From Geodermatophilus sp. YIM 151500 (lineage in GTDB: Bacteria > Actinomycetota > Actinomycetes > Mycobacteriales > Geodermatophilaceae), in contig NZ_JAOVZT010000002.1 in the NCBI RefSeq assembly GCF_025716945.1, positions 110,171 to 174,170 of the forward strand: a stretch of 64,000 nucleotides of DNA. Reading direction: 5' to 3'. This document shows, in pieces, positions 31,917 to 57,936 of this stretch. Below the pieces are notes generated by a model. It had not been told where the DNA came from, did no database searches, and saw nothing but the letters and a program-made list of their open reading frames with translations. Numbering within the stretch: position 1 is the first letter of the stretch; each line of letters starts with the position of its first letter. Made by a program: the position numbers and the translations under genes.

Positions 31917-32058
31917 TCACGCACATGTGATTCACCACGTGCCGCGGGCGGACCGAAACGGCTCGGATGGTGCATGCTCTCCTGCGCGGACGACGCCCGC
32001 CGGATTCCGGACCGGACGGGGTGCGGAACTAGTCCGGGGGGATTCTTGTGACGCGTGT

Positions 32059-32075
32059 GGTCACGGAGCGGTCAC
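32059..32075 (+). promoter_or_regulatory. GGTCAC direct repeat upstream of the amidase gene
   Basis: GGTCAC occurs at 32059-32064 and 32070-32075, one helical turn apart (11 bp). The whole 266-bp gap from 31917 holds no supported gene. Direct repeats of GTCAC-like hexamers resemble sites reported for the response regulator MtrA, which controls wall hydrolases in actinobacteria; the match is by memory. Confidence 0.3.
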
Positions 32076-32182
32076 CGATGCCGTGTCGCGATCAGAAGCG
32101 GACGGTCAACAGCCGAATACTCCGAGTGGTACGAGCCTGGCCTCCGCGGGACCGGGCATGTCGTCCGACCGGAGGAATCTTC

Positions 32183-34159: not shown

Positions 34160-36083
34160 GGCGGTGCGCCGCCGGGCCCACCGCCGCGCCAGCCGCTGGG
34201 GAACCGGGGTGCTCGCCGGGGCGCTGCTCGGGGCGGCCACCCTGGTCACCGCCCCGGCGGCCTCGGCCGCGGTCACCGGCGACGTCGTCTTCGCCGGGCA
34301 CGGGTGGGGGCACGGCCGGGGGCTCGGCCAGTGGGGCGCCTACGGCTACGCGGTGAACCACGGCTGGGACTACCGGCGGATCCTGTCCCACTACTACGGC
34401 GGGACCAACCAGTCCTCGGAGCCCAACGCGCCCCTCACCGTGCACCTGACCGGCCGGGACGGCCAGGACCTCCACGTCACCTCGGCGCGCGACTTCACGG
34501 TCGGCGGCGTGGTGGTCACCGGCGGGTCCGCGGCGCGGGTGCAGGCCCAGGCCGACGGCTCCTTCGTGCTCTCCACCAGCTACGGCTGCGCCTCACCGAC
34601 GGTCTGGACGACGCGGATCCCCAGCTCCCAGGTCGTCCCCTCGGTGCGCGAGGGCGCGGGCCTCGACGCGATGCTCAGCCTCTGCGAGCCCACCGGTACG
34701 ACCCAGTACCGCGGGGATCTGTCGGTGGTCTGGTCCGGCGGCACGCAGCGCACCGTGAACACCGTCCTCATGGAGGAGTACCTGCGCGGTGTCGTGCCTC
34801 GCGAGTCGGTGCCCAGCTGGGGCGACGCCGGCGGCGGCAAGGGCCTGGAGGCGCTCAAGGCGCAGGCCGTGGCGGCCCGCTCCTACGCGTGGGCGGAGCG
34901 CCGGACGACGTACGCCCGGACCTGCGACACCACGGCCTGCCAGGTCTACCGCGGCGCGGGCGTGAACATGAAGTCGACCGAGGACCGGCGCACCGACGCC
35001 GCCGTCGCGGCGACGGCGGGGGTGGTCCTGCGCTCGGGCGGCGGCGCGATCGTGCGCACCGAGTTCAGCGCGTCGACCGGCGGCTGGACCGCGGGCGGGA
35101 CGTTCCCGCCGGTGCCCGACGAGGGTGACACCGCCTCGCCGCACCACGACTGGATCCTGCCGGTGGCGGCGCACACCATCGCCGACGCCTTCGGCGTCGG
35201 CGCCCTCAACGAGATCACGGTCACCGGGCGCAACGGGCTGGGCGCCGACGGCGGCCGGGTCACCGAGGTGCGGATCGCCGGCACGGCGAAGAGCGTGACC
35301 GTCACCGGCGCCCAGGTCCGCTCGAAGCTCGGCCTGAAGTCCGACTGGTTCAGCGTGGCGGTCTCCGCCACGGCCCCGCCACCGCCCCCGCCGCCGGTGC
35401 AGCCGGTGGTGTACCTGGCGTCCGGCAACGCCCCCGGCGCCACGGCGCAGGCGGTGCCGTTCGGGCAGACCGGCGACGTCCCGCTGCTCTGCGACTGGGA
35501 CGGTGACGGCGACGACACGCTCGGCGTCTTCCGCGGCGGCGTCTTCCACGTGACCAACGCGGCCGGCTCCGGCCGGGCCGAGGCGTCCTTCGGCTACGGC
35601 TCGCCGGGCGACCAGCCGGTCTGCGGTGACTGGGACGGCAACGGCACCGAGACGGTCGGCGTGTACCGGTCGGGCATGGTGCACCTGCGCAACAGCAACA
35701 CGCCCGGCCGGGCCGACGGCTCGTTCTGGTTCGGCGACCGCGGCGACGTGCTCGTGGCGGGCAACTGGGACGGCGACCCGTTCGACACCGTGGGCGTGTG
35801 GCGGCGGGGCGTCTTCCACCTGACCAACAGCAACCTGCGCCCGGTCGCCGACGCCGTCGTCCCCTACGGCGCGCCCGACGACCTGCCGGTGACCGGTGAC
35901 TGGGACGGCAACGGCAGCGACACGGTCGCCGTGTACCGGGGGGACCGGTTCTTCGTCCGCAACAGCAACACGATCGGTCCGGCCGACGCCGTCGTCCCGT
36001 TCGGGGCGCCGGGTGACCGGCCGCTGCGCGGCCGTCCGGCGGCCACGGGGCCGGACGTGATGGGGGTCTCCCGGGCCTACTGA
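34149..36083 (+). CDS. Secreted SpoIID/LytB-domain protein with C-terminal repeat array
   Basis: A 644-residue exported protein (or 639 from a GTG at 34164). Signal about 15-40 ending ASAA. FAGHGWGHGRGLGQWGAYGY and VNTVLMEEYLRGVVPRESVPSW mark the SpoIID/LytB domain, followed by KAQAVAARSYAWA and the STGG signature in EFSASTGGWT. SpoIID is a lytic transglycosylase for denuded glycan, made by amidases such as the one encoded upstream. A proline linker at about 413-422 leads to five 45-residue DWDGDG repeats. The start overlaps the previous gene by 11 bases, with no clear ribosome-binding site, suggesting coupled translation. Confidence 0.9.
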   Translation: MGTEAVRRRAHRRASRWGTGVLAGALLGAATLVTAPAASAAVTGDVVFAGHGWGHGRGLGQWGAYGYAVNHGWDYRRILSHYYGGTNQSSEPNAPLTVHLTGRDGQDLHVTSARDFTVGGVVVTGGSAARVQAQADGSFVLSTSYGCASPTVWTTRIPSSQVVPSVREGAGLDAMLSLCEPTGTTQYRGDLSVVWSGGTQRTVNTVLMEEYLRGVVPRESVPSWGDAGGGKGLEALKAQAVAARSYAWAERRTTYARTCDTTACQVYRGAGVNMKSTEDRRTDAAVAATAGVVLRSGGGAIVRTEFSASTGGWTAGGTFPPVPDEGDTASPHHDWILPVAAHTIADAFGVGALNEITVTGRNGLGADGGRVTEVRIAGTAKSVTVTGAQVRSKLGLKSDWFSVAVSATAPPPPPPPVQPVVYLASGNAPGATAQAVPFGQTGDVPLLCDWDGDGDDTLGVFRGGVFHVTNAAGSGRAEASFGYGSPGDQPVCGDWDGNGTETVGVYRSGMVHLRNSNTPGRADGSFWFGDRGDVLVAGNWDGDPFDTVGVWRRGVFHLTNSNLRPVADAVVPYGAPDDLPVTGDWDGNGSDTVAVYRGDRFFVRNSNTIGPADAVVPFGAPGDRPLRGRPAATGPDVMGVSRAY

Positions 36084-38891: not shown

Positions 38892-40859
38892 TCAGCGCCC
38901 GGCGGTGCCGCCGTCCGCGGTGAAGGCCTTCTCCCAGCTCTCCGGCGCGGTGAGGTCGTGCATGTGCGACCGGTACTGCTCCTTGAGCCTGGGGAACTCG
39001 CGGAACAGCTGGGCGTGCACCCGCAGCGAGTGCCGCAGCATCCGCCAGAAGGTGTCCGGCTCGCGGCGGCGGAAGGTGACCCCGCGGCCGTCGGGCAGAC
39101 CCACCGTGGCGCTGTCCAGGCGGGAGAGCAGGAACCACTGGGCGTCCTGCGAGCTGATGTTCATCTGCGGGCGCTCGGCGGCCTCGGGCTTGGGCCTGCG
39201 CAGGTTGTGCACCAGCGCGGCGCCCAGCGTCCGGCCGATGGTGAGCGGCGTCGTCGGCGGCTTCATGAACCGCTCGGCCTTGATCGCCCCCATCGACGGC
39301 AGCGGCAGGTCGGAGGAGGAGTCGACCACCTGGCCGTCGGGGTAGTCGCCCTGGTGCTCGAGCGCGGTCGGCAGCGCCGTCGGTAGCAGGGGGAACAGCC
39401 GGTCGGGCCCGGCGAGGAAGTCGTCGTAGGCCCGCTGGTGCAGCGCCGCGGTGGCGTACTGCAGCATGATCAGCCGCTTGAGGTCGAACTTGAAGGTGTC
39501 GAGCAGCAGCCGGCCGCCGCGCTTGTGCGGCGTGTGCAGCGCCGCGGCCACCAGCCGGTTGCGGGTGTGGAAGTACGCCTGCCAGCCGGCCGTGTCGTCC
39601 TTGTCGCTCCAGGAGAGGTGCCACACCGCGACGCCCGGCAGGGTCGCCGTCGGGAAGCCGTGCTCCCCGGCGCGCAGGCCGTACTCGGCGTCGTCCCACT
39701 TGATGAACAGCGGCAGCGCCAGGCCGAGCTGCTCGACGGCGGCCCGCGGCACCAGGCACATCCACCAGCCGGTGTAGTCGACGTCGATCCGGCGGTGCAG
39801 GTCGGGCGACTTGCGCAGGCTCTTCTTCGCGAAGTCGTGGGCGTACTCGGTGTTCGGCGCGGTCCGCCAGAAGAACTTGTCGCGGGCCACGACCTCGCCC
39901 ATGGTGTGCAGCACGGAGCGGTCCTGCAGGATCAGCATCTGGCCGCCGACCAGCATCGGCCGCTTGGCGAAGCGGGCGAAGGCGAAGGCCCGGGCGATGC
40001 TGTCGGGCTCGAGCTGGACGTCGTCGTCGAGCAGGATGTGGTGCGTCGCGTCGGTCGAGCGCAGCATCTCGTACATCGTGCGGGAGAAGCCGCCGCTGCC
40101 GCCGAGGTTCGGCTGCTCGACCAGCAGCAGCCGCTCGCCGAGCTCCTTCTCGACGTCGGGGAAGCCGCCGTCGTCGCGCACCTTCTTGCTGCCCTGGTCG
40201 GCGACGATGACCCGGTCGATCTGGTCGAGGACGACGGGGTCGCCGGCCAGCGCGCCGAGCGCGGCGACGCAGTCGGTCGGGCGGTTGAAGGTGCAGATGC
40301 CGATCGACAGGCGGGCGTCCTCGGCGGGGGCCTGCGGGGCCGACCAGTGGGCCCGGTGCATGGTCAGCGCGCCGTCGTCGGCGGTGAGGTCGAACCAGTA
40401 CCAGCCGCCGTCCTCGAACGGGGTGAGGTCGAGCTCGAACTCCAGCGTCCGCCGGTCGCCGTCCGTGGTGGCGCCGGTGACGTGGATGACGCTGCCGTCG
40501 GCCTTGGACCGGTAGATGTCGACCCGGCCGGGCCCGGAGACCTCCAGCCCCAGCACGACGTTCCGCAGCACCGTCCAGCGCCGCCAGTAGCTGGCCGGGA
40601 AGGCGTTGAAGTAGGTGGCGAACGACGCCTCGTTGCCCGGCGCGACGACCGCCTCGCCGCGCGTGGGCGACTTGACCCGCGCCGCCCGGGCCTCGTCGAC
40701 GTAGAGCGAGCGCACCTTCAGCGGGTCGCCGGGGCGGGGCATGATCACCCGCTGCAGCAGGGTGATCGCCTTGCCGGAGGCGAGGTCGGCGGCGGAGGGC
40801 TCGCTGACCCGCTCCGGCGACACGCTCGACGGGGCCGCGGTGGTGGGGGTGGTGGTCAT
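38892..40859 (-). CDS. glfT2: Galactofuranosyltransferase GlfT2-like, galactan polymerase
   Basis: A 655-residue GT2 enzyme; M. tuberculosis GlfT2 (Rv3808c) is about 637. It polymerises alternating beta-1,5/1,6 galactofuranose from UDP-Galf. N-terminal beta-rich domain to about 185, then GICTFNRPTDCVAAL, the metal-binding LDDDVQ near 275, WDDAEYGLR near 388 (catalytic-base motif), VAVWHLSWSD with the conserved His, and a helical C-terminal region. Glf, which supplies UDP-Galf, lies 51 bp upstream on the same strand. Confidence 0.93.
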   Translation of the reverse strand: MTTTPTTAAPSSVSPERVSEPSAADLASGKAITLLQRVIMPRPGDPLKVRSLYVDEARAARVKSPTRGEAVVAPGNEASFATYFNAFPASYWRRWTVLRNVVLGLEVSGPGRVDIYRSKADGSVIHVTGATTDGDRRTLEFELDLTPFEDGGWYWFDLTADDGALTMHRAHWSAPQAPAEDARLSIGICTFNRPTDCVAALGALAGDPVVLDQIDRVIVADQGSKKVRDDGGFPDVEKELGERLLLVEQPNLGGSGGFSRTMYEMLRSTDATHHILLDDDVQLEPDSIARAFAFARFAKRPMLVGGQMLILQDRSVLHTMGEVVARDKFFWRTAPNTEYAHDFAKKSLRKSPDLHRRIDVDYTGWWMCLVPRAAVEQLGLALPLFIKWDDAEYGLRAGEHGFPTATLPGVAVWHLSWSDKDDTAGWQAYFHTRNRLVAAALHTPHKRGGRLLLDTFKFDLKRLIMLQYATAALHQRAYDDFLAGPDRLFPLLPTALPTALEHQGDYPDGQVVDSSSDLPLPSMGAIKAERFMKPPTTPLTIGRTLGAALVHNLRRPKPEAAERPQMNISSQDAQWFLLSRLDSATVGLPDGRGVTFRRREPDTFWRMLRHSLRVHAQLFREFPRLKEQYRSHMHDLTAPESWEKAFTADGGTAGR

Positions 40860-40910: not shown

Positions 40911-42182
<1,272 letters not shown>

Positions 42183-45670: not shown

Positions 45671-46089
45671 TCATCCAGCTCCTGCTGGTGCCGGCCCTCG
45701 CGCTGGCCGTCGTCCTGTCGCTGCGCTCGCGCGTGTCGCTGCGCGGGCAGGCCCGGCGCAAGATCCTCGCCGCGGTGACCGTCGTGGCCGGCGTCCTGGC
45801 GGTGCTGTTCCCCGACACCCTGCAGGCGCTGGCCGACCTGACCGGCGTCACCCGCGGCACCGACCTGCTGCTCTACGTGCTCGCGCTGGTGATCATCTAC
45901 CTGGTGGGCAGCACGAGCGCCCGCTTCCGCGAGCAGGAGGCGCGGCTGGTGCTGCTGGCCCGCCAGGTGGCCCTCTCCGAGGCGGCGCTGCGCCACGTCG
46001 AGGCGGTGCAGGCGCGGTCAGAGAAGGCGGCGGACGCCGCTCCAGTAGCCGCTCATCGCGCCGTTCAGCAGGCCGCCGCCGACCGGTAG
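45667..46089 (+). CDS. DUF2304 small membrane protein
   Basis: A 140-residue protein with three hydrophobic segments (about 2-18, 33-52, 64-80), then a charged coiled-coil helix (FREQEARLVLLARQVALSEA). This is the DUF2304 pattern, typically encoded directly after a GT2 of the preceding kind and thought to anchor it. The start overlaps the GT2 stop. The last 72 bases run antisense to the end of the convergent GT2 gene, encoding an Ala-rich tail past the normal family length. Confidence 0.82.
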   Translation: MIIQLLLVPALALAVVLSLRSRVSLRGQARRKILAAVTVVAGVLAVLFPDTLQALADLTGVTRGTDLLLYVLALVIIYLVGSTSARFREQEARLVLLARQVALSEAALRHVEAVQARSEKAADAAPVAAHRAVQQAAADR

Positions 46090-47022
46090 GGGCAGCACGG
46101 TCTGGTCGAAGCGCGCCGTGAGCAGGTGCGCGATCTCCCGGTCGCGGCGGCGCCGGGCCCGCTGGACGGCGCGCCGGTGCCCGGCCAGCCAGCGGCGGTT
46201 GGCCACGAGCCACCGGTAGCCGCGCAGCTTGGCCGGCAGCCACCCGCCGGCCGCCGCCACCACCAGCATCGCCAGCTCGAAGGCCAGCAGCGTCGGCGCG
46301 AGCAGCAGCAGCGTGCGCCGCTCGTAGAGGCTCAGCACCATGGCCAGCCGGTTGCGCTCGAGCAGGTAGAACTTCGCGGGGTTCCGGCCGAACTCGTAGT
46401 GGTGCAGGACGACGGCGTCCGGCACGTAGACGACGTCCCAGCCCTGCTGCCAGCAGCGCATCGACAGGTCGGCGTCCTCGGCGTAGGCGAAGAACGGCTC
46501 GGTGAAGCCGCCCAGGGCGTCCCAGACCTCGCGGCGGACGACGAACGCCGCGCCGGTGGCGCTGGCGATCGGGCCCGGCGTGGCGTGCGCGCTCGCCGGC
46601 TCGCCGAGGTTGCCCGCCCACGACAGGCCGAGCACGTGCACCGGGTTGCCGGAGGTGTTGAGCAGGTCGGGGGTGTCGGCCAGGCGCAGGCTGGCCGAGG
46701 CCAGCCCCACCTCGGGGCGGGCGGCCGTGGCCACCAGCGCGGCGAGCGCGCCGGGCTCGACGAGCGCGTCGGAGTTGACGAAGGCCAGGTACTCGGTGGT
46801 CGCGGCTGCGGCGCCGAGGTTGCAGCCGCCGGTGAAGCCGGTGTTGGTACCGGGCTCGAGCAAGGAGACGCCGGGGCGGTCGCGCAGCGGGCCGAGGTCG
46901 GGGGAGGTGCAGCCGTTGTCGACGACGACGACCCGCGCGTCGACGCCGGTCGAGGCGAGCACCCGGTCGACGACCTCGTGGAGGTAGGGCTGCTCGCCGT
47001 AGGCCAGCACCACGGCGGTCAC
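46018..47022 (-). CDS. GT2 glycosyltransferase, rhamnosyltransferase-like
   Basis: A 334-residue GT-A enzyme with VVLAYGEQPYLHEVVDRVL, VDNGCTSPD, NTGFTGGCNLGAAAA, AFVNSDALVEPGAL, GAAFVVRREVWDALGG and FFAYAEDADLSMRC, then a C-terminal region with one or two membrane-associated segments. It resembles rhamnosyl/galactosyl transferases of surface glycan clusters; the donor is unknown. The GTG overlaps the flippase stop (GTGA), indicating a coupled flippase-transferase pair like that at 18.4-20.9 kb. Confidence 0.87.
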   Translation of the reverse strand: MTAVVLAYGEQPYLHEVVDRVLASTGVDARVVVVDNGCTSPDLGPLRDRPGVSLLEPGTNTGFTGGCNLGAAAATTEYLAFVNSDALVEPGALAALVATAARPEVGLASASLRLADTPDLLNTSGNPVHVLGLSWAGNLGEPASAHATPGPIASATGAAFVVRREVWDALGGFTEPFFAYAEDADLSMRCWQQGWDVVYVPDAVVLHHYEFGRNPAKFYLLERNRLAMVLSLYERRTLLLLAPTLLAFELAMLVVAAAGGWLPAKLRGYRWLVANRRWLAGHRRAVQRARRRRDREIAHLLTARFDQTVLPLPVGGGLLNGAMSGYWSGVRRLL

Positions 47023-48377
47023 GTCCACGGGCTCTGCCTCCTGGTGGGGGTCTCGCCGGGCAGCGCGGTGAGCTCGGTGGAGCCCGGGGCGGTGGGGACC
47101 GGCGGGGTGGCGACGTCGGCCGGCGTCAGCGGGTGCCGCAGGCGGGCGCGCATGAGCAGCAGCAGCAGGGCGGTGGCGACGGCGCTGGCGGCCAGGAACG
47201 CGTAGCCGACGCGCAGCTCCAGCCGCAGCGGCGCGAGCAGCACGACCAGGAAAGTGAGCGCGCCGGCGGTCCAGCCGACGACCGAGGCGCGGTAGCCGCG
47301 CACGGAGATGAGCGCCTGGCCGACGGCGGAGGCGACCATGAACAGCCCGCTGGCGGCGGCGAGGGGCCACAGGTCGGCGCGGGTGGTGTCGAACTCACCG
47401 CCGTAGACGAGCCGGACGAGCGGCGGGCCGACGGCGACGATGACCAGGAGCCCGGCGGTGCCGAGGCCGGCGACTCCGAGTGTGACGATATTCAGCCGGT
47501 GCCGGAAGCCGGCCGTGTCACCGGCGGCGGCGAGGGCGGCCATGCCGGGCAGGAACGAGGCCTGGATCGCGGCGAAGAGGAACAGCGGCACGCGGGCGAG
47601 CACCAGGACGCTGATGAAGATGCCGGCCCGGGCCTGCTCGGAGGCGTCGGCGAGCACGTTGACCGCGACCGGCGCGGCGTTGACGACGAACTGGCCGGCG
47701 AGCGCGCCGACGGTGAGCCAGCCGACGGCGCCGCCGAGGTCGGCCCAGGTGGCGTGCGGGCCGGGCCTGACGGCCGGCCCGAGGCGGGCGGCGGTGACGG
47801 CGACGGCGAGCACCGGCGCGAGGCCGAGGAAGAGGCCGTAGGGGCCGGCGGTGGCGACGCCGATCGCGGCGAGGACGGCGGCGCTGCCGATGCGCAGCAC
47901 GCCGTCGACGGCCAGCTGGGCGCCGTAGCGAGGGAACGCGCCGCTGCCGGCGAAGGCACCGCGGCTCAGGTGCTCGGCGCACAGGCCCGCGAGCCCGACG
48001 AACAGGGCGAGGACGAGGACGTCCTGACCGGCGAAGACGCTGGTGGCGAGCGGCTCGCGGACGACGAGCAGGACCAGCCCGGTGACCAGGACGGCGGCCA
48101 CAGCGAGTCCGGTCGCACGGAGGAAGACCGGGCGGGCGCCCTGCCCGGAGGCGGCGCGGTGGGCGACCGAGCGGCCGACCTCCTGCTCCAGCGGCTGGAA
48201 GAGGGCCGGACCGAGCGCGTTGATCAGCACCCACAGCGTGCCCAGCGGGGCGAGCTCGGCGGGGCCGAGGGCGCGCCCGCAGACGGAGAGGAAGGCGAAG
48301 GAGGCCAGGCCCAGCACGCCGAGCCCCGCGGCGACCGGGCCGATGTGCCGGATCGCGGCGGGTAGTGCCCTGGCCAA
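47019..48377 (-). CDS. Wzx/MATE-like polysaccharide flippase
   Basis: A 452-residue membrane protein with 12 or more helices, similar in layout to the one at 19.5 kb (RAGIFISVLVLARVPLFLFA parallels the equivalent segment there). It would flip a lipid-linked oligosaccharide. It starts with TTG at 48377, supported by GAGGGGG about six bases upstream, and a TAGGCT box 24 bases before. The C-terminal 35 residues are a Pro/Thr-rich cytosolic tail. Confidence 0.82.
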   Translation of the reverse strand: MARALPAAIRHIGPVAAGLGVLGLASFAFLSVCGRALGPAELAPLGTLWVLINALGPALFQPLEQEVGRSVAHRAASGQGARPVFLRATGLAVAAVLVTGLVLLVVREPLATSVFAGQDVLVLALFVGLAGLCAEHLSRGAFAGSGAFPRYGAQLAVDGVLRIGSAAVLAAIGVATAGPYGLFLGLAPVLAVAVTAARLGPAVRPGPHATWADLGGAVGWLTVGALAGQFVVNAAPVAVNVLADASEQARAGIFISVLVLARVPLFLFAAIQASFLPGMAALAAAGDTAGFRHRLNIVTLGVAGLGTAGLLVIVAVGPPLVRLVYGGEFDTTRADLWPLAAASGLFMVASAVGQALISVRGYRASVVGWTAGALTFLVVLLAPLRLELRVGYAFLAASAVATALLLLLMRARLRHPLTPADVATPPVPTAPGSTELTALPGETPTRRQSPWT

Positions 48378-48469
48378 CCGGTTCCCCCTCCCGTGCGCCT
48401 CGCCGCCAGCCTATGGCGCGCTCGCCGGGCGTCTCGGCGCGGTCCGGGGACGCCGCAAGCGGGGGACGC

Positions 48470-48481
48470 CCGACGTGTCGG
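48470..48481 (+). promoter_or_regulatory. CCGACGTGTCGG motif, copy 3
   Basis: CCGAC-GT-GTCGG, a perfect inverted repeat around a two-base centre, 57 bp upstream of the predicted flippase -10 box. It is the most symmetrical of the three copies. Confidence 0.35.
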
Positions 48482-48800
48482 CAGCACCGGTAGGGGCGCC
48501 GAGTCGTGCTGCGGAGGGCGGCCAGAGGGCCCTGCTGGGCCGCCCGACACGCGACGCGGGATGCGGATGTGACGAGCGATGCCGGATGGTGCGCCGGCCG
48601 AAAAAGATGCCGTCGCTGGCTCGATGAGCCGCGTCGGGCTCGAAATCCGGGGTTCTGTCACTCCGTATATCAACGTTGCCCATGGAGTCGACCGCACTTT
48701 GGTGAGGAGTCCTAGCGCGGCGTGTTTCGACGCACGGCTTGTCGACATGTTGCGCCGGAGATGCGGGTCGACACGCACCATTTCCGCCGAGGCGACGTGC

Positions 48801-48828
48801 TTGCCCGGCGATCCGCCGCTGCTAACTT
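48801..48828 (+). promoter_or_regulatory. Sigma-70-like promoter for the 668-aa protein
   Basis: TTGCCC (48801-48806) and TAACTT (48823-48828) are separated by 16 bp, the clearest two-box promoter in the window. The leader of about 36 bases contains GGAGGAT (48862-48868) just before the ATG. This suggests strong expression of the gene. Confidence 0.6.
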
Positions 48829-48870
48829 TCTGCACGTCGCCCATCACGGGGCGCGACTGATGGAGGATTC

Positions 48871-50877
48871 ATGAGCAAGCGAGCACTTACGGTCGGCGTG
48901 CTGACCGCGGGGCTGTCGGCCGGCCTGGTCGCTGGCGCCATCTCCCCGGCCGCTGCCCAGGGCAACCCGGTGGGTGGCCAGGGCAACGTCTACTACCTGA
49001 GCGGTGCCGGCAGCGCCGGCGGCGTGGCGCAGAAGGTCATGGCCTTCGGCAACCCCGGCGACGAGGTCTACTTCGGCGACTGGGACGGCGACGGCGTCGA
49101 CACGCCGATGGTCAACCGCAACGCGGTGTTCTTCGTTGCCGACCAGGACGGCAAGACCACCGACGTCTTCGCCTACGGCAACCCGGGCGACCCGGTGCTG
49201 ATCGGTGACTGGAACGGTGACGGCGTCGACAGCATCGCTGTCCGTCGCGACAACCTCTTCCTGGTCAAGAACGACAACAAGAAGAGCGGCACGGCCGACA
49301 GCCAGTTCTACTTCGGCGACCCGGGCGACAGGGTTCTGGTCGGCGACTGGGACGGCAAGGGTGGCGACACCCTGATGGTGTACCGCGCCGACACCTCGTT
49401 CCACGTCGCGAACGACAACACGTCCGGCAAGACCGACTACACGTTCTTCTACGGCAACCCGGGCGACACCGTCCTCGCCGGCGACTGGGCCAACCCGGAG
49501 ACGGGCGAGAGCGGCAACGGCGCCGACCAGATCGCGGTCCGCCGCGACGGGAACCACTACTTCCTGTCCAAGGAGCTCGGCAAGGACGTCGACCTCAGCA
49601 AGGCGATGCGTGACCTCCGCTACGGCGAGGCCACCGACACCGTCTTCGCCACCTCGCTCCCGACCGAGGTTCTGGACGAGAACGGCAAGGCGTACCCGAA
49701 CAACCAGCGCCCGCAAACCTACGCCGCCGACGTCCCGGCCGTTCACAAGGCCGGCGACCCGATCCTGGTGTGGGACGCCGACGCCACTGACGGCTTCGCG
49801 CAGGCCAAGGACAGCATCACGCAGGCCGTGCTGACCTACAAGGGTGGCGAGCCCGTCACCCAGATGCCCGGTACCAAGCAGGTCTACCGCGGTGGTGAGG
49901 GCGTCGTGACGGCCGACGGCAAGGCCGTCAAGTACGTCGCCGTGGGTGGCACGACTGGTGACAACGCCGTGGACCTTTCCACCGCTGAGGGCTGGGCTGC
50001 CGACGGTGCAAGCACGACCAGCGGCACCATCGCGAAGTACAAGGCGGGGGAGCCGGTCCTCAACGCGGACGGCACTTTCGTCTGGGTGAAGGTCGGTGCT
50101 GACGGCGGCGGTGCGGGCGAACCGGTCGTGGGCAACTGGGCCATCCAGGTCTGGACCGCCAGCGCCACGCCGACGTCGTGGGAGAAGACCCTGCCCGCCG
50201 GTGACGCCAACAAGGTCGCCGTCAAGGCCGGTGACCAGGTGGTTCGTCGCGCTGGTGAGCAGGCTGTCCTGGTGAAGGGCTCCCCTGCTGTCTACGGTAC
50301 TGCGGTCCTGGCCGGCACGAACGGCCAGAAGGCCGGCGACGCGGTCGTCACCCACGGTATGGGCGACGTCATGTTCAACCCCGATGGCACCGTTGCCCGC
50401 AACGCCGACGGCACCGTCCGTACGCACGCCGTCGCGGTGACCAGCACGACCGAGACGTACAAGGCCGGCGCCCCGATCCTCCACCGCAAGGGCGAGATCA
50501 AGACCGGTTACCTGTACGACGCCGACGGGGCTGACGACGCTCCCGGTGGCGGCGACGACCACACCTGGACGCCGACTTCGATCACCAACGACGAACTGGC
50601 CAACCTGTACCAGACCCGTCCCGCCACGGACGTGGCGCGGACGACCGAGAAGCTTGTCTCGGAGCTCGACGCGGACGCCGACATCGAGCCGGTGTGGTAC
50701 GACGGCACCGAGCAGTACGTCACCACGGCCCAGTCGCCTCTGTCGAACTTCGCCGGTGGCGAGACGGCAGCGGGCAACAAGAAGGGTGACGTCGTCTTCG
50801 ACAAGGACGGCAAGCCCGTGATGATCAACACCGTCATCAAGGGTGACGGCCTGGGTGTCCGCCGCAACTTCGGCTGA
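48871..50877 (+). CDS. Large secreted repeat protein with two repeat types
   Basis: A 668-residue exported protein with no recognised catalytic domain. Signal peptide about 1-30 (LTVGVLTAGLSAGLVAGAIS, then AAAQ). Residues about 55-270 hold four or more 45-residue repeats (YGNPGDPVLIGDWNGDGVDS type) with Asp-rich loops. Residues about 290-650 hold a different, irregular repeat with a [YV]KAG[ED]P[VI] core in about eight copies (YKAGEPVLNADG, YKAGAPILHRKG). It ends without membrane anchor or LPXTG. Codon use has many more T-ending codons than neighbours. Strong promoter, near-perfect ribosome site and terminator suggest an abundant surface or matrix protein. Confidence 0.8.
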   Translation: MSKRALTVGVLTAGLSAGLVAGAISPAAAQGNPVGGQGNVYYLSGAGSAGGVAQKVMAFGNPGDEVYFGDWDGDGVDTPMVNRNAVFFVADQDGKTTDVFAYGNPGDPVLIGDWNGDGVDSIAVRRDNLFLVKNDNKKSGTADSQFYFGDPGDRVLVGDWDGKGGDTLMVYRADTSFHVANDNTSGKTDYTFFYGNPGDTVLAGDWANPETGESGNGADQIAVRRDGNHYFLSKELGKDVDLSKAMRDLRYGEATDTVFATSLPTEVLDENGKAYPNNQRPQTYAADVPAVHKAGDPILVWDADATDGFAQAKDSITQAVLTYKGGEPVTQMPGTKQVYRGGEGVVTADGKAVKYVAVGGTTGDNAVDLSTAEGWAADGASTTSGTIAKYKAGEPVLNADGTFVWVKVGADGGGAGEPVVGNWAIQVWTASATPTSWEKTLPAGDANKVAVKAGDQVVRRAGEQAVLVKGSPAVYGTAVLAGTNGQKAGDAVVTHGMGDVMFNPDGTVARNADGTVRTHAVAVTSTTETYKAGAPILHRKGEIKTGYLYDADGADDAPGGGDDHTWTPTSITNDELANLYQTRPATDVARTTEKLVSELDADADIEPVWYDGTEQYVTTAQSPLSNFAGGETAAGNKKGDVVFDKDGKPVMINTVIKGDGLGVRRNFG

Positions 50878-50928
50878 CCCCAGGTGATCGGGCAGGTTCT
50901 CCGGAGCTGACCCTGACACCGCCCCACA

Positions 50929-50976
50929 CGGCGGAACCCCCGTCCGGACCGAGAGGTCCGGGCGGGGGTTCCGCCG
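50929..50976 (+). terminator. Strong intrinsic terminator
   Basis: A 22-bp stem with a single G-T wobble (50929-50950 with 50955-50976), GAGA loop, followed by TTCT. It lies 51 bases after the stop of the 668-aa protein gene. Confidence 0.9.
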
Positions 50977-51047
50977 TTCTAGCTGCTGTCACGCGGAGCG
51001 CCGCGCCGAGGGGTCGGCGGGTCCCCGCCTTCCATCACCCGGCCACC

Positions 51048-51053: not shown

Positions 51054-51175
51054 CACCCCTCGGCCGGGCGGCAGCCGTCCCCGAAACCAGACAGAAGCAC
51101 CATGCGCCCGTCGGAGGAGCGGCCAGCGCCGGCTGCTCGGTGACATCGGCGGCCAGGCCCGCGGGGGACAGATCA

Positions 51176-52609
51176 GTGATAGTCGGCGTCAAGACCATTG
51201 CGGCCTTCTTCGCCCTCGTCGTGCTGGCCGGCGGACAGATGCGGGCCGACACCTTTCCCGACGCCCGCGGGCTCTCGGTCGCCATCATCGGCGACTCCTA
51301 CACATCAGCCGGCTGGGGCACGACCACCGGTCGCTCCTGGCAGCACTACACCGCACTGGAGCTCGGCTGGTCGCTGGACGTCGTCCGGGCGCATCCCGGG
51401 GGTGGCTACGTGAACTCCGGTGGAGGTGGCCCGTACGAGGCGGCCCTCGCTGCGAACCCGTTGCCGGCCACAGTTCAGCAGGTGATCGTGCAGGGCGGGT
51501 TCAACGACCTCGCCTCCGAGCCGGCGCAGGTCGGTGCGGCCGTCAGCCGCACCCTAGCTCTCATCCACGCTCAGGCCCCCGGCGCGACGGTCACGGTCGT
51601 CGGCACCTTCGATCCCGGCCCGGGCAACTTCAGCGACCGCTATCCGGGCATGCGAGCGCTCGGACCGGCCGTCCAGCAGGCCGTCGAGGCGGCCGGCGAC
51701 CGGTACGTCGACGGCTTTGCGGTCCGCTTCGAGGTGGGACCCGACCGGGTGCACCCGACGCCGGCTGGGCACGCGCAGATCGGCCTCGCTGTCGCCCACG
51801 CCATCCGGCGCGCCGCTCCGCACACGGTCGGCCTGCGGGCCGGAGCGCTGAACTCCCGCCGGGCCGCCGTCATCGGCGTCTCGCGGGTCGGGGCCTTCGG
51901 CGTCCGGTGGTTCTACTTCGCCAGCACCGAGGGCGGGCGGATCGGACCGGTCACCCGGGTCGCCTTCGGTGATGCAGGCGACGTCCCGACACTGCTGCCG
52001 AACGCGGCGGGCGAGTGCATGCCCGCCGTCTACCGGCCCTCTGCAGGCACCGCGTACATCGCCTCGCAGCCGATCGACGGCGGCGGCCACGTCGAGGCCA
52101 TCCCGTTCGGCGAACCTGGTGACAGGCTCGTGCAGAACGCGCCGCACGCCGGCCCGGGCGGCCGCTCGCTCTTCCTTCACCGACCCTCGTGGGGCATGTT
52201 CTTCGAGCGCGTTCCGGGCCCCGGCGGGCCGGACGTCGGCGCCCTGGCGTTCGGCGATCCCGGCGACCGCGGCGTCGTCTACTCGGTCGCCGGCGCGGGC
52301 AGCACGCTCGGCGTCCACCGGCCGGGCAACTCCACGTTCTACTTCGCCAACCCGAGCAGCGTCTCGGCTGCTCCCGCGACGTGGCTGTCGTTCGGGAACC
52401 CAGGCGACCAGGGTCTCGTCGGCGCCTGGGGCTGGTCGAACGTCGACGGCTCCGACAAGGTCGGCGTCTTCCGCTCCCGCGAGGCCCGCTGGTTCCTCGC
52501 CGACACGCCAACGCGCCTCACAGGTGGTCCAGCTGCGCCGATCACGTCGGTGACGTCCTTCCACTTCGGCGACCCCGGCGACACCGCGCTGGCTTGCGAC
52601 CCCGAGTAG
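51176..52609 (+). CDS. Secreted SGNH hydrolase with degenerate repeat array
   Basis: A 477-residue exported protein. Signal about 1-22 (GVKTIAAFFALVVLAGGQ). SGNH domain: AIIGDSYTSAG with the nucleophile Ser, GGFNDLASEP, and DRVHPTPAGH with the Asp-His pair; it probably removes ester groups from envelope glycans. Residues about 240-477 keep five FG[DEN]PGD repeat starts at about 48-residue spacing, but the DWDGDG loop of the related arrays is lost in most. GTG 51176 was chosen for GGGGGA seven bases upstream; GTG 51140 is the alternative. Confidence 0.84.
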   Translation: MIVGVKTIAAFFALVVLAGGQMRADTFPDARGLSVAIIGDSYTSAGWGTTTGRSWQHYTALELGWSLDVVRAHPGGGYVNSGGGGPYEAALAANPLPATVQQVIVQGGFNDLASEPAQVGAAVSRTLALIHAQAPGATVTVVGTFDPGPGNFSDRYPGMRALGPAVQQAVEAAGDRYVDGFAVRFEVGPDRVHPTPAGHAQIGLAVAHAIRRAAPHTVGLRAGALNSRRAAVIGVSRVGAFGVRWFYFASTEGGRIGPVTRVAFGDAGDVPTLLPNAAGECMPAVYRPSAGTAYIASQPIDGGGHVEAIPFGEPGDRLVQNAPHAGPGGRSLFLHRPSWGMFFERVPGPGGPDVGALAFGDPGDRGVVYSVAGAGSTLGVHRPGNSTFYFANPSSVSAAPATWLSFGNPGDQGLVGAWGWSNVDGSDKVGVFRSREARWFLADTPTRLTGGPAAPITSVTSFHFGDPGDTALACDPE

Positions 52610-52664: not shown

Positions 52665-53078
52665 TTACTCCGCCGAAGTCCAGTTCCCGTTCTCCCGCGG
52701 ACGCATCATCGGGGCGTCGTCCGAGATGCTGAACGTGCCCTTGCCCTGCAACTGCGTGAAGGTGCCGTCCGCTTCCAGTCGGCGGCCGTTGAGAACGGTG
52801 CCGACGGCCACCAGTACGTCGGCGCCCTCCTTCACGCCGAGCCGGCCGTTCACGACCCCCCGGAGCCGCAATATGCCTCCGCGGGCGTGGACATCCCCGT
52901 TCACAATTGCGTTCACGTCGGCCTGCCCGTCGAGACGGACTTCCAGCGGGCCCTGGCAGGTGCCGCGCAGTTCGAGCCGCCCGGTCACCACGGCGCCGCC
53001 ATGGATGGTGCCCTCGACCGACAGGGCGCCGCGCACATCGAGCGGTCCCTGCACGTCACCGGTCAACTTCTGCAGCAT
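52665..53078 (-). CDS. Bactofilin-like beta-helix protein
   Basis: A 137-residue protein made mostly of short hydrophobic beta-helix turns: VEGTIHGGAVVTGRLELRG, then GPLEVRLDGQADVNAIVNGD and LRGVVNGRLGVKEGADVLV. This is the pattern of bactofilin/polymer-forming cytoskeletal domains, though length and flanks leave room for another beta-solenoid family. A polar C-terminus ends in NGNWTSAE. The ATG has GGGAGGT at seven bases. It converges on the SGNH-repeat gene. Confidence 0.55.
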   Translation of the reverse strand: MLQKLTGDVQGPLDVRGALSVEGTIHGGAVVTGRLELRGTCQGPLEVRLDGQADVNAIVNGDVHARGGILRLRGVVNGRLGVKEGADVLVAVGTVLNGRRLEADGTFTQLQGKGTFSISDDAPMMRPRENGNWTSAE

Positions 53079-53229
53079 GTCCCGACCTCCCTTGTCCTGG
53101 CGGCTGAGGCTACGGCGGGTGAATCCGCGACCGGCGACCGCCTTCGTTGTGCCCGTCCGCCACGTCGTAGGCGCCAGGCGCAGTGGCATGAACGGGGCAG
53201 CTGCGCCCACACGCATGTCTCACCGGTGA

Positions 53230-53243: not shown

Positions 53244-53480
53244 ATGGGTGAGGCGACGGTGCGGGACCTGCGCAACCACGGCGGTCGGGTGCTCGACCGT
53301 GTCGCGGCCGGGGAGAGGGTGACGATCACGCGCGATGGCACACCGGTGGCGCGCCTGGAGCCGGTCGCGCGGGGCAGGCTGCGGGCGAGCGTCCTCGTCG
53401 AGCGCTTTCGCAACCTGCCGGCGCTCGACCCGCAGCACCTGCGGGCCGACATCGACGCAGTCGTGGACCAGGAGTTGTGA
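53244..53480 (+). CDS. Phd/YefM-family antitoxin
   Basis: A 78-residue protein: VRDLRNHGGRVLDRVAAGERVTITRDGTPVARLEP is spread over residues 6-41 and is the typical DNA-binding N-terminal half of Phd/YefM antitoxins; the C-terminal half (RFRNLPALDPQHLRADIDAV) would wrap the toxin. It neutralises the PIN toxin and normally autoregulates the pair. The stop overlaps the toxin GTG. Confidence 0.9.
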   Translation: MGEATVRDLRNHGGRVLDRVAAGERVTITRDGTPVARLEPVARGRLRASVLVERFRNLPALDPQHLRADIDAVVDQEL

Positions 53481-53893
53481 ACACACATCCGGTCGGCGTT
53501 CTCGACACCAACGCGGTAGTTCTCCTGGGACAGTTGGATCCCTTGCTCCTACCCGACGAACCGGTCATCACGTCAGTGACGCTCGCGGAGTTGTCCGTGG
53601 GACCACTGGTGACGGACGATCCCGACGAGCGTGCGGCGCGGCAGGCGCGACTGCAGGAGGCCGAGGCAGCCTTCGATCCGCTGCCCTTCGACGCCGCGTC
53701 CGCACGGAGCTTCGGGCGCGTCGCGGCGGCGCTGCGACGGGCCGGTCGGCAGGTGCGACCTCGTGCGTTCGATGCACTCATCGCCGCGACGGCGGTGGCC
53801 CACGACCTGCCGGTGTACACCTGCAACCCGCGGGACTTCGAGGGCATCGACGCGCTGACCGTCGTCGCCGTCCCGCACCCCGACTCCGGCTGA
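53477..53893 (+). CDS. vapC: PIN-domain ribonuclease toxin (VapC family)
   Basis: A 138-residue PIN nuclease. Acidic active-site residues are visible in [10 protein letters not shown] (Asp10), [10 protein letters not shown] (Glu), [20 protein letters not shown] (Asp) and NPRDFEGI (Asp). VapC toxins cleave tRNA or rRNA when released. The GTG overlaps the antitoxin stop (GTGA). A Phd-type antitoxin with a VapC toxin is a common mixed arrangement. Confidence 0.92.
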
Positions 53894-55886: not shown

Positions 55887-56867
55887 GTGCGCACGGGGTG
55901 GAAGGCGGCCGTCTGCGCCGTCGCGATCGGTTCTGCGGTGGCTTCGACCGCGCCGGTGGGCGCGCACGGCCCGACCATCGGCGGCCACGGCAACCACTAC
56001 TACTTGAACGACAAGTTCGGCGGCCGGGCGAACATGGAGCTGGTCTACGGCGATCCTCGCGACGTGGTGTACGTCGGCGACTGGGACGACAACGGCACCG
56101 ACACCCTCATGGTCCGCCGTGGCAACACCTTCTACGCCCGCAACAGCCTGACGACGGGCAACGCGGAGGTCGTCTTCTCGTACGGCGACCCGCCCGACAC
56201 CGTGCTCGTCGGTGACTGGGACGGCGACGGCAGGGACACGCTGACCGTCCGCCGCGGCAACCGCTACTTCGTGAAGAACAGCGTGACCTCGGGCGTCGCC
56301 GACGCGGAGTTCACGTACGGCAACCCGGACGACGAGGTGCTGGTCGGTGACTGGGACGGCGACGGCAGGGACACGCTGACCGTCCGTCGCGGCAGCACCT
56401 ACTACGTCAAGAACAGCGTGACCACCGGCGTCGCCGACACGACGCTCGTCTACGGCAACCCCGGCGACATCGTGCTCACCGGCCGCTGGTCGAACACCCA
56501 GCCCGGTGACACCCTCGCCGTGCGCCGCGGCAACACCTACTACCTGCGCTACACGCTCACGCCCGGGGTCGCCGACGTCGTCGTCCCGTTCGGGGAGCCC
56601 ACCGACACCGCCTTCTCCGGCGACTGGGGCGGTGACGGCCAGGACACCCTCGGCGTCCGGCGGCACGTCGGCGCCCCGCCGCCTCCCGCGCAACCCCTAC
56701 CGCCGTCCGCCCCACCGGGTCCCGCCCCGAGTGCCGACGTCAACTGCGACGACTTCGCCACGCAGGCCGCGGCGCAGGCGTGGTTCGACTACTGGTTCCC
56801 GGCGATGGGCGACGTCGCCGGGCTCGACGGCGACGACGACGGGAAGGCCTGCGAGAGGCTGCCCTGA
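55887..56867 (+). CDS. Secreted 45-residue-repeat protein with C-terminal Excalibur domain
   Basis: A 326-residue exported protein. Signal about 1-26 (AAVCAVAIGSAVASTAPVGA). Five repeats of about 45 residues follow (YGDPPDTVLVGDWDGDGRDT type); the fourth lacks the Asp loop (TGRWSNTQPGDT). A proline linker leads to an Excalibur calcium-binding domain: NCDDFATQAAAQAWFDYW and LDGDDDGKACERLP. No enzyme domain. GGGGGAG precedes the GTG. Two repeats share 44 identical bases. The next gene is a paralogue with the same architecture. Confidence 0.88.
   Translation: MRTGWKAAVCAVAIGSAVASTAPVGAHGPTIGGHGNHYYLNDKFGGRANMELVYGDPRDVVYVGDWDDNGTDTLMVRRGNTFYARNSLTTGNAEVVFSYGDPPDTVLVGDWDGDGRDTLTVRRGNRYFVKNSVTSGVADAEFTYGNPDDEVLVGDWDGDGRDTLTVRRGSTYYVKNSVTTGVADTTLVYGNPGDIVLTGRWSNTQPGDTLAVRRGNTYYLRYTLTPGVADVVVPFGEPTDTAFSGDWGGDGQDTLGVRRHVGAPPPPAQPLPPSAPPGPAPSADVNCDDFATQAAAQAWFDYWFPAMGDVAGLDGDDDGKACERLP
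56208..56386. repeat. 44-bp identical direct repeat, 135 bp apart
   Basis: 56208-56251 and 56343-56386 are identical and are 135 bp (45 codons) apart, covering the GDWDGDGRDTLTVR segment of successive protein repeats. Identity including third positions implies recent duplication or conversion. Confidence 0.85.
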
Positions 56868-56940
56868 CGCGTGGTGCTGCTGGTGTGACACGTCGGACCC
56901 TGGGTGGGTCCGTGACCGGACGGCGCCGTTTCGCGGTGCT

Positions 56941-56970: not shown

Positions 56971-56985
56971 GGACGGAGTGTCGTC

Positions 56986-57936
56986 ATGCGCACGCGCGTA
57001 CGGGCCGCCACGACTGCCGCAGTCGTCGTCGGGCTCGCCCTCACAGGGGCCGGCTCGGCCCAGGCCCAGGGCACCACGGTCGGCGGCTCCGGGGCCGAGT
57101 ACTACCTGAACGACACCTTCACCGGCCGGGCCAACATCGAGCTGACCTACGGCGAACCGTCGGACCAGGTGTACGTCGGTGACTGGGACGGCAACGGCAC
57201 CGACACCCTCATGGTCCGCCGGGACAACACCTTCTACGCGCGCAACAGCGCCACTCCCGGTGCGGCCGACGTGACCTTCGCCTACGGCGATCCCGGTGAC
57301 ACCGTCCTGGTCGGCGACTGGGACGGCAACGGCTCCGACACCCTGGCCGTGCGCCGCGGCAGCACCTACCACGTCAAGAACACCGTCAGCACGGGCAGGG
57401 CCGACACGGTCTTCGTGTACGGCGACCCGGGCGACACCGTCCTGGTCGGGGACTGGGACGGGCGTGGCGGCGACACGCTCGTCGTCCGTCGCGGCTCCAC
57501 GTACTTCGTGAAGAACGACCTGCTGACCGGCGTCGCGAGCAATGTCTTCGTCTACGGCGACCCCGGTGACACCGTGCTCGCCGGCCGCTGGACCACCAAC
57601 CAGGCGGGCGACACCCTGGGCGTCCGCCGCGGGAACACCTACTTCCTGCGCAACTCGCTCACGCCGGGCGTCGCCGACACGACCTTCGCCTACGGCGAGC
57701 CGACCGACACCGCCTTCACGGGCGACTGGAACGGGGACGGCAAGGACACCCTCGGCGTTCGCCGAGGCCGGTCGGGCCCGACGCCGCCGCCCAACCCGGG
57801 TGACGACGTCGACTGCTCCGACTTCGTCACGCAGGCGCAGGCCCAGGCGTGGTTCATGCTCTATTACCCCTACTACGGCGACGTCGCCCGCCTGGACGCC
57901 AACGGCGACGGCCAGGCCTGCGAAGCGCTGCCCTGA
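56986..57936 (+). CDS. Secreted 45-residue-repeat protein with Excalibur domain, paralogue
   Basis: A 316-residue exported paralogue of the preceding protein: signal about 1-28 (AATTAAVVVGLALTGAGSAQ), then GSGAEYYLNDTFTGRANIEL parallel to the neighbour, five repeats (YGDPGDTVLVGDWDGNGSDT type) and an Excalibur domain (DCSDFVTQAQAQAWFMLYY, LDANGDGQACEALP). The fourth repeat again replaces the Asp loop with a GRW segment, showing that the duplication copied a complete ordered array. Role unknown; calcium-dependent wall association is plausible. Confidence 0.88.
   Translation: MRTRVRAATTAAVVVGLALTGAGSAQAQGTTVGGSGAEYYLNDTFTGRANIELTYGEPSDQVYVGDWDGNGTDTLMVRRDNTFYARNSATPGAADVTFAYGDPGDTVLVGDWDGNGSDTLAVRRGSTYHVKNTVSTGRADTVFVYGDPGDTVLVGDWDGRGGDTLVVRRGSTYFVKNDLLTGVASNVFVYGDPGDTVLAGRWTTNQAGDTLGVRRGNTYFLRNSLTPGVADTTFAYGEPTDTAFTGDWNGDGKDTLGVRRGRSGPTPPPNPGDDVDCSDFVTQAQAQAWFMLYYPYYGDVARLDANGDGQACEALP

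What the first reader, a model, noticed from the sequence alone, without database searches (positions are those of the whole stretch)
48378..50976. High-expression, lower-GC island for the 668-residue protein
The gene has the only clear two-box promoter in the window, a near-consensus ribosome site, a 22-bp terminator and many T-ending codons, and its upstream gap is the lowest-GC stretch here. Together this suggests either a very abundant surface or matrix protein or an acquired gene.
Basis: partly seen in the sequence, partly recalled or inferred. Interest (0 to 1): 0.5.

Follow-up and report, generated by a model that had tools for sequence, protein, structure and literature searches.

The report
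Abundant surface lectin in exchangeable cassette
The gene looks built for very high output and encodes a secreted five-bladed propeller, probably a sugar-binding protein that coats the cell of a soil actinobacterium; it lies in a cassette that comes and goes among relatives, and this propeller stands in for an unrelated wall-anchoring repeat (LGFP) on the same enzyme.

Summary
In detail: one two-box promoter, a good ribosome site, a 23-pair terminator and the window's lowest-GC 300 bp upstream. The T-ending codons are not AT drift: they fill four-fold boxes (57/396) but not two-fold boxes (1/174), the largest contrast of 141 genes, recurring in 4 of 5 orthologues. This marks translational selection, so 'very abundant protein' is favoured.

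The 668-aa protein is a signal peptide plus a five-bladed beta-propeller whose closing loop carries a ~390-residue variable insert. A paralogue's propeller folds at pLDDT 95.8; the top VIA-align matches are UmbA4 bound to a Streptomyces wall glycopolymer (Z 13.2) and tachylectin-2 (Z 12.0). The same propeller sits on an amidase, a SpoIID protein and an SGNH hydrolase. In four relatives the amidase orthologue lacks it (three read: LGFP arrays instead), and the gene, its membrane-protein neighbour and a glycosyltransferase are missing from the locus. Carriers are scattered over an rpoC tree.

Best reading: an abundant self-coating lectin on a propeller anchor that replaces LGFP. Sugar binding, abundance and the matrix role are inferred.

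The parts
48801..48828 (+). promoter: -35 TTGCCC, 16-nt spacer, -10 TAACTT
   Evidence: TTG and TAACTTT invariant in 6 of 6 aligned loci, spacing 16-17
48836..48857 (+). conserved leader element (imperfect inverted repeat GTCGCCC..GGGGCGCGAC) just after the expected transcription start
   Evidence: 19-mer core identical but for one base in 6 of 6 aligned loci; match without mismatch once in each of 7 of 112 family genomes, always just before the orthologue. RNA fold is not better than shuffles (z -0.78)
48862..48866 (+). ribosome-binding site GGAGG
48871..50877 (+). 668-aa secreted propeller protein
48871..48960 (+). signal peptide, residues 1-30 (by eye: ..SPAAAQ)
   Evidence: sequence; conserved in A1
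48961..49686 (+). five-bladed beta-propeller, residues 31-272
   Evidence: 10-residue mean pLDDT 77-92 over residues 41-230, 61-79 over 231-280 (whole model 54.7); paralogue model pLDDT 95.8
49687..50835 (+). ~380-390-residue insert in the strand-1/strand-2 loop of the closing blade; hypervariable, no known family
   Evidence: loop 21-476 residues in nine aligned proteins, 394 here; pLDDT mostly under 50
50836..50874 (+). closing strand, GDGLGVRRNFG
   Evidence: GDG-GVRR invariant in 9 of 9 rows; pLDDT 70-82
50928..50977 (+). strong hairpin terminator, 23 pairs
32048..34159 (+). PGRP-type amidase with the same propeller at its C-terminus
   Evidence: Amidase_2 4e-15; repeats
34149..36083 (+). 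SpoIID-domain protein with the same propeller
   Evidence: SpoIID 1e-21; repeats
38892..40859 (-). GlfT2-type galactofuranosyltransferase
   Evidence: PF19320 7e-71, PF17994 7e-53
40911..42098 (-). Glf-like UDP-galactopyranose mutase (name recalled)
   Evidence: 86-94% identical in 12 of 12 relatives whose locus was fetched, next to a glfT in 11 (not G345)
46018..47043 (-). family 2 glycosyltransferase of the cassette core
   Evidence: PF13641 2e-20; in 8 of 8 carriers, absent from 4 of 4 LGFP loci
47019..48377 (-). membrane protein of the cassette core, divergent from the 668-aa gene; about ten hydrophobic segments, flippase-like by eye only
   Evidence: no flippase match in Pfam or PDB sequences (segments); >=49% identical copy in 16 of 112 genomes, 15 of them propeller-positive
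51140..52609 (+). SGNH/GDSL hydrolase with a diverged propeller
   Evidence: PF13472 3e-16; found at the locus in 4 of 8 carriers
52665..53216 (-). bactofilin-like protein
   Evidence: PF04519 0.0026, below cut-off; found at the locus in 6 of 8 carriers
55887..56867 (+). stand-alone propeller plus Excalibur-like tail
56986..57936 (+). second stand-alone propeller, tandem paralogue

Best explanation
The gene encodes a very abundant secreted protein built on a five-bladed lectin-like beta-propeller. The propeller holds the protein on the cell's own surface glycopolymer, and the ~390-residue insert in its closing loop faces outward as a variable coat. The same propeller anchors wall enzymes of the locus (amidase, SpoIID, SGNH hydrolase) and does the job that LGFP repeats do in sister genomes. 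The 668-aa gene travels with a glycosyltransferase and a polytopic membrane protein, often also a bactofilin and an SGNH hydrolase; I take these to make or export the glycan that the propeller recognises. Shown here: architecture, high-confidence predicted fold, propeller/LGFP exchange on one orthologous enzyme, co-occurrence and scattering of the cassette, codon selection, conserved control elements. Inferred: glycan binding, self-binding, protein abundance, coat or matrix role, the work of the membrane protein, the identity of the glycan.
For: Codons: T in 57/396 four-fold vs 1/174 two-fold, Fisher 6e-9; background 3.2% in both; ribosomal/EF set 3.6% vs 0.9%; rank 1 of 141; p <= 0.001 in 4 of 5 orthologues and 0 of 3 paralogues from relatives. 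Fold: paralogue propeller pLDDT 95.8, pTM 0.90, 20 strands; VIA-align best UmbA4 with wall glycopolymer Z 13.2, then tachylectin-2 Z 12.0, with GlcNAc-binding PAL/PVL 10.3-10.6; same top hit from the 668-aa model, Z 13.7. Literature: UmbA4 propeller binds teichuronic acid on wall teichoic acid, and the glycan bridges propellers into filaments (PMC13274773, section 12 read). Swap: amidase orthologues match through the propeller in 7 of 7 other carriers and only up to residue 466-475 in 4 of 4 LGFP loci; 3 of 3 of these that I translated end in LGFP arrays. Anticorrelation: median LGFP matches 3 in 17 propeller genomes vs 25 in 95 others, p 6e-5; within genus g5 p 0.001. Cassette: membrane protein with propeller 15 both, 1 membrane protein only, 2 propeller only, 94 neither, Fisher 1.4e-15 (49% threshold set after seeing the list). 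Control region and terminator conserved.
Against: No binding or expression data. CAI to ribosomal genes is ordinary (29th percentile); orthologue L021 lacks the codon contrast. Plain Foldseek ranks eukaryotic propellers (KICSTOR, BBSome) above the lectins and does not show UmbA4 in its first 50; the third VIA-align row is an RHS-type insect-toxin component (Z 10.7) and olfactomedins reach 10, so a propeller fold alone does not prove sugar binding. A profile of the propeller finds no solved relative by sequence (best E 0.46). 10 of 17 propeller genomes keep 3 or more LGFP matches, G356 (25) and G365 (15) many; 16 of 95 propeller-negative genomes have no LGFP either; in genus g11 the trend is reversed. 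Relatedness is not corrected for. The neighbour is flippase-like by eye only. The insert has no confident fold.
Confidence: 0.58

Rival explanations
1. Propeller is a Ca-binding protein-protein scaffold (FG-GAP/integrin-like), not a lectin: the protein self-assembles into a layer or binds another surface protein, and the enzymes dock to it.
For: DxDxDG-like loops in most blades (consensus); 4 of 58 relatives match FG-GAP_3 at E <= 0.001; an RHS-type toxin component, olfactomedin and KICSTOR propellers are among the structural matches.
Against: The two best VIA-align matches are lectins; a glycosyltransferase travels with the gene; LGFP, its stand-in, is itself proposed to anchor to the cell wall (PMC3314691 passages).
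Confidence: 0.2
2. Lower GC and T-ending codons mark a gene taken from a lower-GC donor, with no special expression.
For: Low GC; patchy presence; neighbour's tree conflicts with rpoC.
Against: Two-fold boxes are 173/174 C-ending while four-fold boxes are 14% T; drift from a lower-GC donor should raise both. The same contrast recurs in 4 of 5 orthologues, and the membrane-protein gene beside it is not unusual (9/354 vs 1/63).
Confidence: 0.06
3. Secreted antagonist or umbrella-like targeting protein: the propeller binds other bacteria and the polymorphic insert is the active part.
For: Best structural match is an umbrella-toxin lectin; insert is hypervariable between orthologues.
Against: No known family in the insert; no trypsin-like domain; loop only 38 residues in orthologue L023; the same propeller sits on the cell's own wall hydrolases.
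Confidence: 0.08
4. Cassette and propeller are merely inherited with one allele of the envelope locus and have no functional relation; the LGFP anticorrelation is ancestry.
For: LGFP counts are confounded by relatedness; 16 of 95 propeller-negative genomes have no LGFP, and 10 of 17 propeller genomes keep some.
Against: Carriers are scattered (8 changes for 8 carriers), e.g. sister pairs G345 (carrier)/G346 and G408 (carrier)/G400, the partners having 42 and 41 LGFP matches; the exchange is within one orthologous amidase.
Confidence: 0.14

Closest known systems
UmbA4 C-terminal beta-propeller lectin of Streptomyces umbrella toxin (PDB 9oee; PMC13274773)
   Same: Best VIA-align match (Z 13.2, 209 residues, 3.6 A); actinobacterial secreted propeller; Ca-type loops conserved across blades (paper, and here); reported ligand is an actinobacterial wall glycopolymer.
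   Different: 20% identity; at least six blades (the paper places a site between blades 5 and 6) vs five here; no trypsin-like or bulb-lectin domain found here; UmbA4 targets other species, ours is inferred to bind self.
Tachylectin-2 (PDB 1tl2)
   Same: Second match (Z 12.0, 196 of 235 residues, 3.2 A); five blades of about 47 residues (recalled).
   Different: 12% identity; horseshoe-crab lectin.
LGFP repeat proteins (PF08310), e.g. corynebacterial PS1
   Same: Tandem C-terminal module on wall amidases and secreted proteins; proposed cell-wall anchoring (PMC3314691, passages); same locus and same amidase orthologue here.
   Different: Unrelated sequence; no PF08310 match in the window proteins scanned.
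Five-bladed propeller of phage phi11 receptor-binding protein (PMC4901313, abstract and start of introduction seen)
   Same: Five-bladed propeller with a cavity that could hold GlcNAc; the phage needs GlcNAc on wall teichoic acid.
   Different: Phage tail protein; homology not tested.
FG-GAP/VCBS-type repeats (PF13517)
   Same: Propeller repeats with DxDxDG-like loops (recalled); match at E <= 0.001 in 4 of 58 relatives.
   Different: No match listed for the window proteins.

Membership tests
beta-propeller fold, five-bladed | five four-stranded blades closed into a ring | tested here: met
   20 strands, pLDDT 95.8, pTM 0.90 for the paralogue; the 668-aa model agrees over its propeller
propeller lectin | binds sugar between or on blades | not testable with these tools
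   only fold similarity to UmbA4 and tachylectin-2
UmbA (umbrella toxin lectin subunit) | N-terminal trypsin-like domain before the lectin | tested here: not met
   hmmscan of the 668-aa protein gives no such domain; the propeller follows the signal peptide directly
LGFP repeat (PF08310) | Pfam LGFP profile match | tested here: not met
   none in the 668-aa protein and 4 others nor in the amidase and SpoIID proteins; 3 LGFP matches in the whole genome
FG-GAP/VCBS repeat | Pfam match above cut-off | tested here: not met
   none for window proteins; E <= 0.001 in 4 of 58 relatives
tachylectin-2 | five blades of about 47 residues (recalled) | tested here: met
   five blades of about 45 residues
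tachylectin-2 | sequence homology | tested here: inconclusive
   12% identity; no PDB sequence match by profile
S-layer protein | forms a crystalline surface array | not testable with these tools
   no imaging
highly expressed gene | codon usage under translational selection | tested here: met
   four-fold/two-fold contrast; but CAI ordinary
MOP-type flippase (for the neighbour 47019-48377) | Pfam or PDB sequence match to a flippase family | tested here: not met
   no such match; about ten hydrophobic segments

The most novel reading that the evidence does not exclude
Members of this family exchange whole surface types by recombination: a mobile cassette (glycosyltransferase, membrane exporter, abundant propeller coat protein, often bactofilin and esterase) together with propeller-tailed wall enzymes replaces the LGFP-based surface, like a capsule serotype switch that also rewrites the anchoring code of the cell's own wall enzymes. 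The abundant 668-aa protein cross-links the new glycan into a matrix, and its insert is diversified by outside pressure such as phage.
Probability: 0.28. Interest if true: 0.75.

Novelty: new variant of a known kind. Interest (0 to 1): 0.58.

Why it matters
It suggests that a propeller, unnamed in Pfam and NCBIfam as far as my scans go, is a general surface-retention module: 99 frames with it in the loci that I collected include amidases, proteases, phosphatases and others. It also gives a natural experiment: close relatives whose orthologous amidase carries either LGFP or the propeller. That makes it testable what each module binds and why actinobacteria exchange them. And it shows that in a 70-75% GC genome the contrast between four-fold and two-fold boxes can separate high expression from foreign origin.

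Tried and rejected
Foreign-donor reading of the low GC: rejected by the codon-box contrast. RNA hairpin in the leader: the sequence is conserved but the fold is not better than shuffles, so I make no structural claim. Regulon idea for the 19-mer: matches without mismatch occur once in each of 7 of 112 genomes, only before this gene; four one-mismatch matches in four other genomes were not followed. Insert as a known domain: nothing usable in Pfam, NCBIfam, PADLOC or PHROGs for the 668-aa protein; Pfam also empty for four orthologues, PHROGs gave one weak hit (phrog_3248, E 0.008) in L020; no match in phage records. The part from residue 241 on has no match in 295 other genomes drawn from the class, but the family search finds related inserts in G380, G387 and G408. 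AlphaFold leaves it mostly under pLDDT 50, so its fold is open. 'Flippase' for the neighbour: I wrote this first by eye; Pfam (E up to 1) and a PDB profile search give no flippase match, so I now call it a membrane protein and lowered three figures a little (best explanation 0.60 to 0.58, novel case 0.30 to 0.28, cassette makes the glycan 0.45 to 0.40) and raised two rivals by 0.01-0.02. UmbA4 is absent from the first 50 Foldseek rows and appears only in the VIA-align second look. Viral structure library: no match at E <= 0.001. Literature: no paper holds the string GDWDGDG or both LGFP and Geodermatophil-; one off-topic paper for propeller/cell wall anchor/Actinobacteria/secreted; some searches gave the papers cited or listings not used. 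Most subscription papers are not searched. Pfam partner counts are lower bounds, as 25 families are shown per call. In one search, 12 of 153 called genes were dropped for too few codons; one row (Exc2) used wrong coordinates and is ignored. The rpoC tree used 25 of 28 genomes searched (G393 had no match, G411 and G017 only fragments); the 17 non-carriers were my choice, and G356 and G367, which have a more distant copy of the membrane protein, were counted as non-carriers.
Full report
WHAT IS THERE. The gene is an open frame of 668 codons at 48871-50877. Its -35 (TTGCCC, 48801) and -10 (TAACTT, 48823) boxes, 16 nt apart, are the only match to a loose actinobacterial two-box pattern on either strand of the 64 kb (pattern written after seeing the site). 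An E. coli-type consensus scan does not list it. A GGAGG lies 4 nt before the ATG. The terminator has 23 pairs (-56.8 kcal/mol, z -8.3) but no T-run. The upstream gap is the lowest-GC 300 bp of the window (62.0%).

THE CODON ARGUMENT. I asked whether the T-ending codons are drift or selection. Drift raises T in two-fold and four-fold boxes alike; translational selection does not (general knowledge). In 141 genes of this genome with enough codons (eight 20-kb stretches plus the window, called by my own script), pooled T usage is 3.2% in both classes. In 17 ribosomal and elongation-factor frames, named by eye around the L2 gene, it is 3.6% and 0.9%. In the 668-aa gene it is 57/396 (14.4%) and 1/174 (0.6%), Fisher 6e-9, a difference of 0.138; the next gene has 0.055. 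Orthologues L009, L020, L022 and L023 show it (p <= 0.001), L021 does not (p 0.4), and 0 of 3 short paralogues do. Against: CAI with the same reference set is only at the 29th percentile, because ribosomal genes here use few T codons; a log-odds score is at the 88th.

CONSERVED CONTROL REGION. In 6 of 6 aligned loci the -35 TTG, the -10 TAACTTT and a 19-nt leader element (one variable base) are conserved. The 19-mer occurs without mismatch once in each of 7 of 112 family genomes, always just upstream of the orthologue. A like terminator hairpin stands in all six, with changes on both sides of the stem (by eye; no pair count was run). The leader's RNA fold is not significant.

ARCHITECTURE. No Pfam, NCBIfam or PDB sequence match passes threshold for the 668-aa protein. 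It has a signal peptide, five repeats of about 45 residues and a tail ending GDGLGVRRNFG. In nine aligned proteins the loop before the closing strand measures 21-22 residues in three short paralogues, 38 and 139 in two orthologues and 394-476 in four long ones, the window's being 394. AlphaFold gives a confident propeller and closing strand and a mostly unreliable insert (mean pLDDT 54.7, pTM 0.46). The propeller of the paralogue at 55887, with 51 rows, gives pLDDT 95.8, pTM 0.90 and 20 strands, i.e. five closed blades. VIA-align ranks UmbA4 bound to teichuronic acid first (Z 13.2), tachylectin-2 second (Z 12.0), an RHS-type insect-toxin component third (10.7), then PAL/PVL lectins and olfactomedins near 10; the 668-aa model itself gives UmbA4 Z 13.7. 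Plain Foldseek orders other propellers first. In the UmbA4 paper the propeller recognises a wall glycopolymer and the glycan bridges propellers into filaments (PMC13274773; section 12 read, other passages).

THE MODULE ELSEWHERE. The own genome has 13 matching stretches: in the window an amidase, a SpoIID protein, an SGNH hydrolase and two stand-alone propellers; just left of the window a protein with a metalloprotease-like zinc motif (by eye); on another contig a PKD-like protein (by eye). From 82 loci (78 plus 4 viral) I took 99 frames with three or more repeats; among them are Amidase_2 (10), S8 protease (8), CAP (8), metallophosphatase (8), SpoIID (3) and many other domains. A profile finds the module at E <= 1e-10 in 20 of 396 genomes drawn from the phylum, own included.

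MODULE REPLACEMENT. In the family, 17 of 112 genomes match the protein. I compared the locus in eight carriers (G000, G008, G345, G380, G381, G382, G387, G408) and four LGFP genomes (G346, G370, G384, G407); a fifth, G400, was too short to tell. In the seven other carriers the amidase orthologue matches to its propeller end (in G008 from residue 135 on). In 4 of 4 LGFP loci it matches only up to residue 466-475, before the propeller, and the three that I translated (G370, G384, G407) end in LGFP arrays with a second LGFP protein beside them; carriers have the propeller-tailed SpoIID gene there. The glycosyltransferase 46018 and its membrane-protein neighbour are present in 8 of 8 carriers, the 668-aa orthologue next to them in 7 (G382's contig ends there), bactofilin in 6 and the SGNH gene in 4; none of the five is found in the four LGFP loci (tblastn E 1e-10). 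In G346 and G370 the GT (44591) and SDR (53916) genes that flank the cassette here lie about 0.5 kb apart; in G384 and G407 the manC-like gene is followed directly by SDR. LGFP matches per genome: median 3 in 17 propeller genomes, 25 in 95 others (p 6e-5; relatedness not corrected); within genus g5 0, 0, 0, 5 against 7-53 (p 0.001). Exceptions: 10 of 17 propeller genomes keep 3 or more, G356 (25) and G365 (15) many; 16 propeller-negative genomes have none; genus g11 runs the other way.

MOBILITY. Copies of the membrane protein of at least 49% identity occur in 16 genomes, 15 of them propeller-positive (Fisher 1.4e-15; threshold set after seeing the list, 34 of 112 have any match). On an rpoC tree of 25 genomes the eight carriers need eight changes (shuffles 7.0) and one clade is rejected (p-AU 4e-47; quick tree, non-carriers chosen by me). 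Membrane-protein and rpoC trees of the eight reject each other (p-AU 1e-27 and 4e-4). Multiple losses with recombination remain possible.

WHERE. The family is inferred to be Geodermatophilaceae: G408 contig C2 (572,160 bp) fits JHVP01000002.1, Geodermatophilaceae bacterium URHA0031, and G008 contig C17 (52,333 bp) fits NZ_JAAGWK010000003.1, Goekera deserti.

MECHANISM AND CONFIDENCE. Secreted, propeller-based and under strong codon selection: about 0.9. Abundant at the surface: about 0.75. Propeller is a lectin for the cell's own wall glycan: about 0.6. The cassette makes or exports that glycan: about 0.4 (lowered, because the neighbour is flippase-like by eye only). Matrix cross-linking as in UmbA4 filaments: about 0.35. 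LGFP anchoring is itself a proposal in two of the papers I saw (PMC3314691 and PMC6116114, passages); PMC12113857 (passages) states a wall interaction for Corynebacterium. I recall, without a call, that M. tuberculosis has an LGFP amidase gene beside glf and glfT2, which would make this an old functional slot.

Noticed in passing
window 53244-53893: Likely VapBC-type toxin-antitoxin pair (PIN domain at 53477-53893, PF01850 1e-9; antitoxin-like frame just before it, by eye) beside the cassette; little room for it in G380, where the bactofilin and SDR matches are about 64 bp apart.
   Followed up: partly
window 38892-40859 and relatives: GlfT2 has two allele classes among relatives (about 80% and about 60% identical) that do not follow the propeller/LGFP type, as if the locus recombines internally; carrier G345 lacks it at this place.
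   Followed up: no
L020, L021, L022 inserts: Three orthologue inserts carry a segment like TVTSATANFVAGDVGRTI that reminds me of phage tail-fibre modules (recalled); absent from the window's insert; no informative PHROGs hit for L020 or L022 (L021 not scanned there).
   Followed up: partly
L027, L029, L013: Related propellers on a sulfatase-like protein, a polysaccharide deacetylase-like protein and a phosphodiester glycosidase-like protein (names by eye).
   Followed up: no
L148-L151: Four IMG/VR viral contigs encode relatives of the propeller (29-39% identity).
   Followed up: no
L009 and L023, blade 3: Two orthologues (G008 = Goekera, G381) have a second large insert in the same kind of loop but in blade 3, so these loops look like insertion hot spots.
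   Followed up: no
window 55887-57936: Tandem pair of stand-alone propellers, the first with an Excalibur-like tail (E 0.0011, below cut-off).
   Followed up: no
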